Assembly: GCA_022457155.1 (NCBI GenBank)
Contig: JAJGOT010000056.1
Span: forward strand, 2,153,286 to 2,217,285
From: Cladopsammia gracilis
Lineage: Eukaryota; Cnidaria; Anthozoa; Scleractinia; Dendrophylliidae
Direction of reading: 5' to 3'
Length of the DNA: 64,000 nt
Each line of letters begins with the position of its first letter. Position 1 is the first letter of the stretch. The notes beneath the pieces were generated by a model. That model saw only the letters and a program-made list of their open reading frames with translations, was not told the DNA's origin and made no database searches. Position numbers and translations under genes: made by a program. Shown here piece after piece: positions 37,397-64,000 of the stretch.

Positions 37397-37578
37397 AGAG
37401 AGAGAGAGAGAGAGAGAGAGAGAGAGAGAGAGAGAGAGAGAGAGAGAGAGAGAGAGAGAGAGAGAGAGAGAGAGAGAGAGAGAGAGAGAGAGAGAGAGAG
37501 AGAGAGAGAGAGAGAGAGAGAGAGAGAGAGAGAGAGAGAGAGAGAGAGAGAGAGAGAGAGAGAGAGAGAGAGAGAGAG
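37397..37578. repeat. (AG)91 tract at the left edge of the 10-kb array
   Basis: Pure AG dinucleotides run for 182 bp. To the left is sequence not found elsewhere in the array; to the right unit 1 begins with accgattcaagt. The internal junction tracts are much shorter (24 and 26 dinucleotides). Confidence 0.98.
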
Positions 37579-37590
37579 ACCGATTCAAGT

Positions 37591-37720
37591 GGGTATTTGC
37601 TACGAACAATGGGTATTTGCTACGGTAGCAAATACTCAGTGGGTATTTGCTACCGTAGCAAATACCCACTAGTGAGTATTTGCTACCATAAATGGGTATT
37701 TGCTACCGTAGCAAATACCC
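37591..37720. promoter_or_regulatory. Cluster of eight 13-bp half-sites forming three palindromes (unit 1)
   Basis: Forward copies of GGGTATTTGCTAC (one with GAG at the start) begin at 37591, 37611, 37641, 37674 and 37694. Reverse copies (GTAGCAAATACCC, one ending CTC) begin at 37625, 37655 and 37708. Pairs at 37611-37637, 37641-37667 and 37694-37720 form 27-bp palindromes with a one-base centre. They look like binding sites for a dimeric DNA-binding protein and could extrude as cruciforms. Confidence 0.9.
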
Positions 37721-39214
37721 AATGTGAATGTTGCCTAATACAAAGTCTCTTAATAACCAACATACAGACAGCCACATCGTTTCATAGTATTTTTTCCTAT
37801 TTACGATGTATTTTTTTTCTTTTCGTTGTGACTGTGTGCCTGTTTCTATACATTTTATACTGAGGAGCTGTTATAAACTCGTGTATTCCGGTGAACGCGA
37901 TGTATTGTAATTTCTTGGCATTATTACATTATTTGACATTCTTTGCAAAAAAAACCGTTTAGAAAGTAAAAATAAATATGATGGAAGGCAACCTATTAAG
38001 TCGCTAAATCCTGGCGATAACATGCGCGCCCGACCAGATTAAATGCAAAGAAAATTGTGGCCGATACTCGCAAACTGTCTGGTCTTAGACAGCTCAGTGC
38101 TCTACTGATGAGTTCAAAGAAAGTCAACATTTTTGCCTTACAATATTTTTGAACCACATCTACAACAAACTTCGTTGCGAACGGCGGAAGACAAACCTAA
38201 AAAAACAATCGAAAAAAAATTGCAAAAAGCTTGCAATTTTCGACAGCAAAACATGGAAATGCGTACTTAACGTTCTTAACAGTGAACGTATATTTTGCTG
38301 TGACAAACAACTAAGGGTGCAAAAACGTGCATTTACTAGTAAAATCTGATGTTTCAGTTGTTATGTGAAACATTGATACGATGAGGTGCAATTTGTTCAG
38401 GCTTCCAAACAAACACTATCAAAAGAAAACACACTAAAGATTGGCACTGCGATGTTCGCAAAGAGTAATTATTCTTTTGTTTCGGACAAGTTTATTTAAA
38501 AAGGGTACAAATTGTCACAACTGTGTCCGTGATTAATATATTAAAAAGACTTACATTTTCTAAGCTAATTATTGTTCGTATGAAGTGACTATAAAGACTG
38601 GTCAAGTACAAGCGCAAGCATAAGCCCAAGCAAAAGAGTTCTGCGTAAGGGACAACGATCGCAAGAACAAGCACATTCAAGCACAAGAACGCAAACTATT
38701 TTATTATAATTGTACATGTTTAAACCAGGTTTTTGTGCATTTGACCGACAGAAAACATAAATCTATTTGTTTTACTCATTGACTGAAAGCTCTAATAATT
38801 CTGAAAGTGAAACGAACAATTTTCACGGCAACGACGTTTTTAACAAGCAAAATTCGGAAAATCAAGGCAAGAAACTAACTACATGAATAAAATAAAATGT
38901 TAAGTCATTTTTTCTTGAATAAAACAGCGGATTTAGAGGGCCACAAGAGATTGTCGTCAGGTCTCTGTTAACTTTTCTCTCAAAAGAAAACAGACTCGGT
39001 TATATTAAGAACTGGGTTTAAAGTAGGAGGCGTTGTCAAAAGAATACATGGGAGTGACGAGACTAAGCCACGGCCCTCGACATGTCGCCTTAAACACCTT
39101 CACCTGTTTCCTACACGCAAATCCGCTCTAGTAGGTGCGGTTTTATGTAATGTAAAATTTATTTTAGTCTCTTATGTAGGTATATATACAGGCCACTTAT
39201 GTTGTATTGTAAAA
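37721..39214. other. Unit 1, segment without genes
   Basis: Only short open frames occur. A low-complexity stretch of caagc-type repeats lies near 38600-38690 (aagcgcaagcataagcccaa). In this interval unit 2 differs from units 1 and 3. Confidence 0.6.
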
Positions 39215-39257
39215 CTCCCTGAAGAAGTGTGCGTTAGTCACACGAAACGCGTAGGAG
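39215..39257 (+). ncRNA. Hammerhead-ribozyme-like motif (unit 1)
   Basis: CTCC is followed by CTGAAGA (the variable seventh core position is A), a stem GTGTG/CACAC with a seven-base loop, GAAA, CGC-GTA, then GGAG. CTCC and GGAG pair as stem I; GTA is a permitted cleavage triplet. Stem III strands form the palindrome ACGCGT, the dimer-type arrangement known from Penelope-like elements. All invariant core positions are present. Confidence 0.65.
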
Positions 39258-39340
39258 AAAATAAATCGCTTTACAACTCTAAGAGTTCGCAGACGTGCTG
39301 CTCACTAGTTCAATCTTGAAAAAATTAAAAAAATAAACAA

Positions 39341-60914: not shown

Positions 60915-60924
60915 ACTTCACCTA

Positions 60925-63204
60925 GTGAAAGTTCCTGCACGCAAGGATGTTACTTCCAGTGATAAAGCGAATGATACGATAGTAATTTCCAATAGTGACG
61001 TGTCCGGTTCAGATCCAGAGTATGTTTGTGAACGAGAGAGGGATTCTGAAGCAACTAGCCAATCAGGTATAGCGGATGATTCATCTTCTCTCTACACAGA
61101 ACGCGAGGAACTGCTCACAGGGTTGGTCGAGGTTGTTGGGGCAGAAAAAAATTGAAAAGGGTTCATTTCTAGATTGTGGTGAAGCAGCTTGGTGTAGAAA
61201 GGTCAAGGAGTTCAAAGATAGAAAAATAAGGGAAGGCCATATATTTAAAACTGTTTTTGAAACAGCTGAAGAATTAAGGCGTGTGTACGAAGACAAAGAA
61301 GATAGCGACGATGAGGCATTTCAAGCTATGTTTGATGGGGACGAAAGTGATAATGACGATGCATTAGACACACAGTGGATGCCAAGCGATTGCGAAATGG
61401 ACGAACAAGAATCTTCCAAGACCGGAACAAAAGAAGGACACAATGACGAAGTGACAGAGAAATTCCTTGTGGATTTTTATAACTGGTTGATTGACGTCGA
61501 TGGCGGCTACCGTAGTACAAAAATGGCGCAGCAATATCAGTCACAAGTGCAAAGTGTCATCCGCAGGTTAAAATTGGATGAAACGTTCACCGAGGCGGCC
61601 CAACCTAAACCACCTGCACTGTATCTCCTATTGCATCCAGGAAGGGACGGAGTTAAGCTATTGAAGACGTGGCTGTCCTATGCTGTGGACAAGTATCAGC
61701 CTGGGACTGTAAGATCTTATTTAATGAGTTTACGACTTTTCTATAAATTTCTTACTCAAGAATGCTTATCTGACCTGCCTGATGTTAGCGTGGAGACCCT
61801 TAATTCACGCCGAGATTACATGACGTCATGGTCAGCTGCTCAAAAGAAAAAGGTACTAAAGAGGAAGCTTGAGAAATACGACGAGGATTACAGAAAACTC
61901 CTCTCGAGCGAAACACTGCACACGGAAATCAACACGTCAATGCTGTCAAACAGCTTGCTGAAACATCGCAGAAGATAAATAGCGGAAACGATGTCGGCAG
62001 AACTCTCAGTGACACGTCACACTGCGAAGTTCGCGACTGGCTAATGACGCGTCTCCTTATTGACAACAGTGGGAGATGTGGAGTTGCAGCCAACATGACA
62101 ACGAGCGAATTTCAAGATGCTGTTTACTATCCCGGTACCGAAGAAGACAGTGCAAGGTATAGGATCGATGTCAAAAATCACAAGACAGCTGGGGTGTATG
62201 GTGCGGCAAATGTCTGGGTGTATGACAATTTGTATCTTCTGATAGACATGTACTTGAGAACTGTCAGAAGTCAGTTTGTTACAGCAGATTCACGGGTAGA
62301 TCAAGTATTTGTTTCAAGTAATGGATTGGCACTCACCTCGTCACAAGTCTCTAACTGCATTTGTAGAACATTCCAAAGAGAAGGCATTGACCTTAAAGGG
62401 AAAATTTGCACAACAACAATCCGGAAATCACTTGCAACCGGAATGCATGTTCACATGCCTGATCAAAGGGATCATTTGGCCGCCCTTGCACAACACAAGA
62501 CGCAGACGCAAGCAAGATATTACCGCGTCCATGACAAAGTTAATGAAACTGATTTGGGAAGAAGGGCTGTCAAGAAACTTGTTTCTCTACAGACCGAGGA
62601 CGTTCTTCAGGCAAAGAAAGAGAACATGACGTCTGCGGCGTGGACCATGGAGGAAACTCAGGAGTTACAGAAACTATTTCAACGAGAACTGGAAACAGGA
62701 TCCATCAAAGAGCCTGAAGTCAACGAAAAACTGGTGGAAACAAGTATTCTCAAAACGCATTCCCCTAAAGCAGTTGTACTTAAGCTACGTCGAATGAGAG
62801 AAGAGCACGCGAGAAATTTGGAGCCCTCCAATGAGCAGCTCACAAGCAAAGAAAAAGTCTTAAACTTCCTCAACGTATCGGAATTTCAGAAAGTGACATC
62901 GGCAGCGTCGAGCGTCCCCTCTGTGTCAGGAGAATCGTCCAGGTTTTTTAGAAAGTTTACAGATGAACAGACAAGACATCTACTCAGTTTGACAAAGGAC
63001 CTTGTCCAAAATAACACAATAAAGAAGGAAGTGGTTTGGCAGAGGGTAGTTGACGATGCGAGAGCACTGGAGCTTGGTCTGATTACTGGGAATGAAGATG
63101 AGGCGCAAATTCATAAAGCCAAGCAGCGCCTCACAGACAAAGTGCGTCAGGAGGTAAACAAAATAAAGAACAAAGTAACAAAAAAAAGAATTAACAATAA
63201 TTAA
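60925..63204 (+). pseudogene. Tyrosine-recombinase-like protein (unit 3)
   Basis: Same three frame segments and the same two frame changes (near 61146 and 61924) as units 1 and 2. Confidence 0.8.
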
Positions 63205-63380
63205 TAATACAGTAAAACCGAAAGTAACCTCACTGTTACGCGCGCATAAATCGAGCATCAGGCACCCATCCAGCAAGCACGAATCGGGCCTATTATTATT
63301 CAAAAGTTTTGTAAAGGCGCAATGGAAACTACCGTACATGTAAGCATGTATCTGAAATCAATCCAGGCGTGCAGTAGGAA

Positions 63381-63509
63381 ATAAACTATAGGCTTGCATT
63401 GAAAGGTGAACTAGGTGTGCTTTATAGATACTGAACTAGGCGCGTATTGAAAACTAAACTAGGCGCGCATTGAAAACTTAACTAGGCGCGCATCGGAAAC
63501 TTAACTAGA
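63381..63509. repeat. 23-25-bp tandem repeat (unit 3)
   Basis: Same six-copy repeat as in unit 1. The remaining DNA to 64000 matches the AT-rich segment of unit 1. Confidence 0.9.
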
Positions 63510-64000
63510 CGAGTTTTACTTAATGTGCGTTTTCTGTTACCTGATTTTTTTTTTGAATTATGTGAAACGTTACCCAGTGATTCAAGCAAACCACGAAACC
63601 ATGTTATCAGTCATCTTGAATCAAAAGCAAACATAGTAGTTCGTTTAATTATACACTGCAATCCGTCCAAAAGGTAAATCGAAATTGGTTCCCGTGTAAT
63701 ATTTCTTACATTATTTTTTGACGTTTTGCGCGACGTTTTGTAGGAGTTCTTTACCCTCGGCTGACGGGCAAAAAAGGCGCATTTAGATATGAGGTTATTT
63801 TTGGTTGGTACTATAGGATTAAGAACCCCTTTCACTTGCTGGCATATATGAACGAACTTTAACTGCATTAATTTACGCTCAAACTTGTGAATGCCTTGAT
63901 ACTATAAATGTTATCCGCAACTTTTGGTTCCAAGTATTTTTAAAGCGAACGTTCGTAAGTTAAGCATGACATGTATTAATATTTAAACTATAGTGATCAC

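What the first reader, a model, noticed from the sequence alone, without database searches (positions are those of the whole stretch)
37397..64000. Head-to-tail array of 10-kb units encoding a tyrosine-recombinase-like protein
Two complete and one partial unit, with offsets of 9986-10003 bp, repeat the same order of parts: half-site cluster, hammerhead-like motif, 20-bp minisatellite, recombinase-like frame, CpG-rich 23-bp repeat, long non-coding DNA, half-sites, (AG)n. I know of no described element combining these. Crypton-like elements are normally dispersed and a few kb long, and macrosatellites do not usually encode a recombinase. It may be a macrosatellite born from, or amplified by, a site-specific recombinase.
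Basis: partly seen in the sequence, partly recalled or inferred. Interest (0 to 1): 0.88.

Follow-up and report, generated by a model that had tools for sequence, protein, structure and literature searches.

The report
Transposon macrosatellite seated in AG repeats
A genome that is likely a coral's carries a head-to-tail block of near-identical 10-kb copies of a likely mobile DNA element whose recombinase gene is broken; four single copies elsewhere in that genome also sit between AG-repeat tracts, and the block likely grew by recombination between such tracts.

Summary
The array is real in the assembly. Two complete units and one partial unit (37580-64000), 99.8-100% identical, run off the end of their contig; a second contig (48,865 bp) holds four more complete units and one partial. 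The encoded protein resembles tyrosine recombinases (YRs) in sequence, catalytic residues and predicted fold, but in the window's units its frame is broken twice and its zinc-finger-like N-terminus is deleted. Predicted relatives of 959-1,147 aa exist; the few with an organism name are all from corals. The same genome holds four single copies with the same ends (10.3-15.0 kb); the middle of one was not read. All 9 outer ends examined (8 of single copies, 1 of the array) abut an AG-rich tract; 67.8 kb of flank holds no such tract. One single copy is followed, after only such a tract, by a different relative. I conclude that this is a YR DNA transposon residing in AG microsatellites, and that the array is a defective copy, likely multiplied by recombination between AG tracts. 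Against it: a diverged relict lacks AG at its edge. The hammerhead is not supported. Read depth, spanning reads and empty sites could not be checked.

The parts
37397..37579 (.). outer left (AG)n tract, 91 copies, between unique flank and unit 1
37580..47528 (+). unit 1, complete (9,949 bp)
47529..47577 (.). junction (AG)n tract, 24 copies
47578..57515 (+). unit 2, complete (9,938 bp); 6 substitutions from unit 1, all in unit positions 276-990
57516..57568 (.). junction (AG)n tract, 26 copies
57569..64000 (+). unit 3, partial (6,432 bp), cut by the contig end; identical to unit 1 over its length
37590..37721 (.). left half-site cluster of unit 1: 8 half-sites, with three inverted pairs (11-bp arms, 7-bp spacer) at 37610-37638, 37640-37668 and 37693-37721; same in units 2 and 3
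46943..47515 (.). right half-sites of unit 1: four, the outermost inverted
37582..37604 (+). left arm of the imperfect terminal inverted repeat
47501..47525 (-). right arm of the imperfect terminal inverted repeat
39342..40927 (.). 20-bp minisatellite, 78.8 copies; its right edge is the junction of the deletion that removed the N-terminal coding part
40954..41160 (+). piece of the recombinase gene in a first frame (acidic stretch), before the first frame break
41087..41989 (+). open frame with the SAM-like core-binding part; homology leaves this frame at 41932
41884..43215 (+). open frame with the catalytic part and C-terminal extension; homology enters at 41932; R at 42085, K at 42193, R at 42433, H at 42505, Tyr pair at 42529-42534
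43400..43519 (.). 23-bp CpG-bearing repeat, 5.1 copies, 77% matches; function unknown

Best explanation
The array is a head-to-tail amplification of a deletion derivative of a likely tyrosine-recombinase transposon whose single copies in this genome lie between AG-repeat tracts, and it likely grew by recombination between the AG tracts that flank each copy. Shown: the copies share the same ends, inverted terminal half-sites and AG flanks; the window units share one deletion and two frame breaks; single copies lie on other contigs, and one is stacked head to tail with a different relative. Inferred: the family's recombinase binds the half-sites, the element leaves as a circle closed across an AG stretch and re-enters an AG microsatellite, so each insertion keeps AG on both sides. 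Inferred: a defective copy with such direct AG flanks then multiplied by unequal exchange, first between AG tracts and later over the 10-kb units, which also homogenised them.
Against: No empty site, transposition event or circle was seen; the searches for an empty site did not complete. A diverged relict at C1155 has half-sites without AG at its left edge. No copy in this genome was shown to encode an uninterrupted protein. C90 was read only at its ends and has no match in the protein search. The fold evidence is moderate: mean pLDDT 67, pTM 0.44, no Foldseek match at E<=0.001. The first His of the HxxR motif is Thr. Equal AG junctions also fit growth through circles.
Confidence: 0.6

Rival explanations
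1. The array was built by the recombinase itself, supplied in trans by an uninterrupted relative: circles of the defective element re-entered the AG tract, or one of the inverted half-site pairs, of a resident copy, adding one unit at a time.
For: Every unit keeps both ends and three inverted half-site pairs of core-site geometry; the internal AG junctions are uniform (22-29 copies); two different relatives are stacked in one tract at C263; reads joining both ends across a repeat are known for nimaviral YR elements (PMC10871703, passages).
Against: No circle, active enzyme or uninterrupted gene was shown in this genome; the mosaic of unit 2 points to ordinary exchange; unequal crossing-over needs no enzyme of the element.
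Confidence: 0.22
2. AG tracts are not the target: the element carries or generates AG repeats at its ends when it moves.
For: AG is present at every outer end examined, and tract length varies widely (24 to about 430 copies); microsatellite growth after insertion is discussed for plant TAFTA elements (PMC5907723, section 19).
Against: The impurities at C263 are locus-specific and lie on both sides, while C1321 and C90 have pure tracts; the diverged relict C1155 lacks AG on its left side, though age could explain that.
Confidence: 0.12
3. Assembly artefact: single copies were chained falsely through their AG ends.
For: The window contig ends inside the array; contig C491 is error-rich at its ends; no read data could be seen.
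Against: Internal junction tracts are only 22-29 copies (44-58 bp), easily spanned by long reads (inference); seven of seven complete or partial units compared that span unit position 1763-3348 carry the same minisatellite of about 79 copies, and the window units carry the array-specific deletion, unlike the single copies C1321 and C581; two contigs show the same order.
Confidence: 0.05
4. A macrosatellite of other origin that happens to contain a recombinase fragment.
For: Long non-coding stretches and a minisatellite in each unit.
Against: The unit exists with the same ends as single copies on other contigs.
Confidence: 0.01

Closest known systems
Tandem-repeat-targeting tyrosine recombinases of endogenous nimaviruses (PMC10871703; abstract and passages seen)
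   Same: YR with zinc-binding and SAM-like domains; insertion into a tandem repeat, there (TAACC)n; reads that join both ends of the element across the repeat, read there as concatemers or episomes.
   Different: Those are large viral genomes with many genes in crustaceans; this element is 10-15 kb, with one recognisable gene, in a likely coral, in AG repeats. No sequence comparison between the two enzymes was made here.
SaTar elements, non-autonomous MULEs of plants (PMC5907723; abstract, sections 13 and 19 seen)
   Same: Elements with inverted ends, flanked by microsatellites and stacked end to end without nesting.
   Different: Short (about 400-1,700 bp), MULE-type, arrays of unrelated elements, often (TA)n; here a YR element with near-identical 10-kb units in AG repeats.
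Animal Cryptons (PMC3212892; abstract, part of section 4 and section 8 seen)
   Same: YR-encoding DNA elements, also known from a sea anemone.
   Different: Described without terminal repeats and without a C-terminal domain; this element has both inverted terminal half-sites and a C-terminal extension.
Macrosatellites such as D4Z4 (recalled; search listing only)
   Same: Kilobase-scale, near-identical, head-to-tail units with signs of homogenisation.
   Different: Here the unit is a recognisable element with single copies elsewhere in the genome.

Membership tests
Tyrosine recombinase superfamily | Catalytic positions R, K, HxxR, H/W, Y in order | tested here: met
   R404, K440, R520, H544 and Tyr 552/553 (P0032 numbering) are invariant in 11 relatives, and each is present in the window's frame; the H of HxxR is T. 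The match to the motif is by recalled spacing.
Tyrosine recombinase superfamily | Core-binding plus catalytic fold | tested here: met
Animal Crypton | No terminal repeats | tested here: not met
   Imperfect terminal inverted repeat and 12 half-sites per complete unit.
Animal Crypton | No C-terminal domain after the recombinase | tested here: not met
   About 200 conserved residues follow the catalytic Tyr in most of the near full-length relatives.
Animal Crypton | YR of the Crypton / DUF3504 type | tested here: inconclusive
   No DUF3504 or QRICH1 model among the Pfam families listed for 11 relatives at E<=1; no tree was built.
DIRS, PAT, Ngaro retrotransposons | Reverse transcriptase | tested here: not met
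   No RT in the ten other frames of unit 1 scanned with Pfam at E<=0.1; only a part of all frames, and not the single copies, was scanned.
Starship | DUF3435 captain recombinase | tested here: inconclusive
   Not among the Pfam families listed for 11 relatives at E<=1; no direct comparison. The feature itself is recalled.
Nimaviral YR elements | Large viral genome with nimaviral genes around the YR | tested here: not met
   Elements are 10.3-15.0 kb; no Pfam match above cut-off in ten other frames of unit 1.
Nimaviral YR elements | Residence in a tandem repeat | tested here: met
   9 of 9 outer ends abut an AG-rich tract; the repeat differs from (TAACC)n.
SaTar / MULE | MULE-type transposase family and 8-11 bp target duplications outside microsatellites | not tested
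   The only recognisable gene is a YR; no copy outside AG was available for a duplication test.
Macrosatellite | Head-to-tail near-identical kilobase units | tested here: met
   Two complete and one partial unit in the window, four complete and one partial in C491; read support untested.
Retrozyme or ribozyme-bearing element | Hammerhead ribozyme | tested here: not met
   No Rfam ribozyme at E<=1 in 36000-48000; z 0.01 for the candidate at 38105.

The most novel reading that the evidence does not exclude
Corals host an undescribed group of tyrosine-recombinase DNA transposons whose integration site is the AG microsatellite itself: circles recombine into AG tracts, each insertion recreates its own target on both sides, different members stack head to tail in one tract, and such stacks seed macrosatellites.
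Probability: 0.4. Interest if true: 0.85.

Novelty: new variant of a known kind. Interest (0 to 1): 0.7.

Why it matters
It would give an animal YR transposon with a defined, likely harmless and self-renewing target (a dinucleotide repeat), and a traceable route from transposon to macrosatellite: single copies, a stacked pair and a homogenised array lie in one genome. How macrosatellites begin, and how eukaryotic YR transposons choose their sites, would both become testable here. It also warns that AG tracts in coral assemblies may hide large elements and arrays that break contigs.

Tried and rejected
Hammerhead ribozyme: rejected. The miRNA-family matches at the left cluster score below their gathering scores and reflect the palindromes. 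Introns as the cause of the frame changes near 41150 and at 41932: rejected for the window units, because homology continues in the next frame with no DNA in between; a frame change behind the zinc-finger part of the single copies could be an intron and was not resolved. Other genes in the unit: ten further frames gave no Pfam match above a curated cut-off. Relatives in the viral and prokaryote contig collections: none confirmed, and no exact half-site palindrome in viral contigs. Sequence match to solved structures: none convincing (two hits at E 0.34 and 0.4, none at E<=10). The C-terminal extension looks Myb/SANT-like by eye (recalled motif), but no such Pfam model was listed, and the structural matches cover mainly model residues 1-351. 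One search split contig C491 wrongly and was redone. Haplotype duplication as the source of the array: disfavoured, because the repeat ends exactly at the element ends and not in flank.

That this combination is not in print rests on the search listings, in open-licence PubMed Central papers only; Repbase was not searched.
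Full report
WHAT IS THERE. The window holds two complete and one partial head-to-tail unit, 37580-47528 (9,949 bp), 47578-57515 (9,938 bp) and 57569-64000, preceded by (AG)n tracts of 91, 24 and 26 copies. Units 1 and 3 are identical over the 6,432 bp they share. Unit 2 differs from unit 1 by 6 substitutions and a few indels (99.8% identity). The six substitutions fall within 715 bp; 5 in a million random placements are as tight. Such a block is what exchange or conversion between units leaves (inference), and a simple assembly loop would not give it.

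THE ARRAY RUNS ON. The window is G000:C1153:2153286-2217285 of an assembly of 877,814,584 bases in 1,469 contigs. Contig C1153 has 2,217,285 bases, so the array runs off the contig end. A second contig, C491 (48,865 bp), consists of four complete units and one partial. Its four complete units carry none of the six substitutions of unit 2; the partial one starts beyond those positions. Differences from unit 1 are mostly indels: 2, 3 and 4 columns in three complete units, and 17 and 39 columns (with 1 and 3 substitutions) in the units at the contig ends. I read that as thinly covered contig ends of a long-read assembly (inference). The 6 internal AG junctions seen (2 in the window, 4 in C491) have 22-29 copies. 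The outer left tract has 91, and C491 ends in a noisy AG stretch of 264 bp. Whether the two contigs abut, overlap or are two haplotypes is unknown.

THE ENDS. The half-site TGGGTATTTGCTACG occurs 12 times per complete unit at 2 or fewer mismatches: 8 in 37590-37721 and 4 in 46943-47515. The expectation is 0.015 per 10 kb. One match with 3 mismatches lies elsewhere in the window, at 13772. Three pairs per unit form inverted repeats with 11-bp arms and 7-bp spacers, the geometry of Xer/lox-type core sites (recalled). The outermost half-sites form an imperfect terminal inverted repeat. Genome-wide the 29-bp paired site has 52 strand matches at 32 places (my count of the rows), and 0 for the backward control. 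The places lie on seven contigs (C90, C263, C491, C581, C1153, C1155, C1321), at element copies or, for C1155, at a diverged relict.

THE UNIT'S GENE IS BROKEN. Homology starts near 40954, changes frame near 41150 and again at 41932, with no DNA in between. The N-terminal third is absent from 37590-40890. At the right edge of the minisatellite the sequence passes straight into a coding position that in C1321 and C581 lies about 2.2-2.3 kb behind the minisatellite, after the zinc-finger part. The window's units share these lesions, so a defective copy was amplified. C1321, C581 and C263 also show frame changes; some could be introns.

SINGLE COPIES IN AG REPEATS. C1321 (14,976 bp) lies between about 70 and 24 AG copies. 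C581 (12,572 bp) lies between about 430 and 68. C263 (14,789 bp) lies between AG-rich tracts with GGG-type impurities on both sides. C90 (25602-35914, 10,313 bp between its ends) lies between 54 and 44. C90 was read only at its ends, and the protein search lists no match there, so its recombinase region may be missing. With the array's left end, 9 of 9 outer ends abut such a tract. In 67,826 bp of flank, cut by me just outside the tracts, no AG or CT tract of 8 or more copies was found. The shared 6.6 kb of the unit, C1321, C581 and C263 is 98.7-99.4% identical, so the spread of the family looks older than the array. At C263 another element with its own half-sites follows head to tail after only the AG/GGGA tract. 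Its two coding parts match coral proteins at 40-63% identity, and its DNA matches the unit only in short patches.

AGAINST, AND FURTHER AFIELD. The relict at C1155 has half-sites but no AG at its left edge. Of the 51 protein matches in the genome, 15 are near copies (88-100%) and 36 are distant (22-43%). One distant locus, C334, was looked at on one side. A different half-site array lies about 2.7 kb beyond the gene match and directly abuts about 62 AG/CT copies, with the same polarity towards its half-sites. No recombinase homology was found in that stretch, so it was not shown to belong to the gene.

MECHANISM. Shown: dispersed copies with identical ends, AG flanks, one stacked pair, a shared deletion, a mosaic unit. 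Inferred: the YR binds the half-sites; a circle closed over an AG stretch recombines with an AG microsatellite; the array grew by exchange between AG tracts and later between units. Growth through circles by an enzyme in trans is the main rival.

KNOWN RELATIVES. Animal Cryptons are described without terminal repeats and without a C-terminal domain (PMC3212892, section 8), so the element is not filed there. Nimaviral YRs (PMC10871703, abstract and passages) are nearest in working; SaTar elements (PMC5907723, sections 13 and 19) are nearest in architecture. PMC4157794 (passages) names Crypton and TEC as the DNA YR elements. PMC6431247, PMC3627910 and PMC12440569 were seen in passages. No paper on such a coral element appeared in the listings.

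Noticed in passing
window 22242-22763 (+): Open frame with a weak QRICH1-domain match (E 3.7e-4, below the cut-off), likely a piece of a Crypton-type YR unrelated to the array's recombinase.
   Followed up: no
window 29561-31927 (-): Open frame of 788 aa with Roc and COR-A domains above their cut-offs.
   Followed up: no
window 32815-33402 (+): Reverse-transcriptase fragment (RVT_1, E 2.4e-8).
   Followed up: no
window 1485-2564 (-): Open frame with a ZU5 domain (E 2.7e-6).
   Followed up: no
window 3272-3974: 84-bp tandem repeat, 8.4 copies, 98% matches.
   Followed up: no
window 16001-20000: CpG observed/expected falls to 0.37, against 0.58-1.01 in the other 4-kb bins.
   Followed up: no
L045 (G000:C334:1187001-1194000), 2701-3080: A different half-site-like array (CATAGGGCACTT, 8 copies at 1 or fewer mismatches) directly abutting about 62 CT/AG copies; possibly the end of a distant relative.
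   Followed up: partly
L043 (G000:C1155:412001-414500), about 956-1086: Diverged half-site cluster without an AG tract on its left side, likely an old relict.
   Followed up: partly
L009-L012 (C1321, C581) and window 39342-40927: The 20-bp minisatellite differs widely between copies (234 and 116 repeats in C1321 and C581) but has about 79 in each array unit, which fits a very recent amplification.
   Followed up: partly
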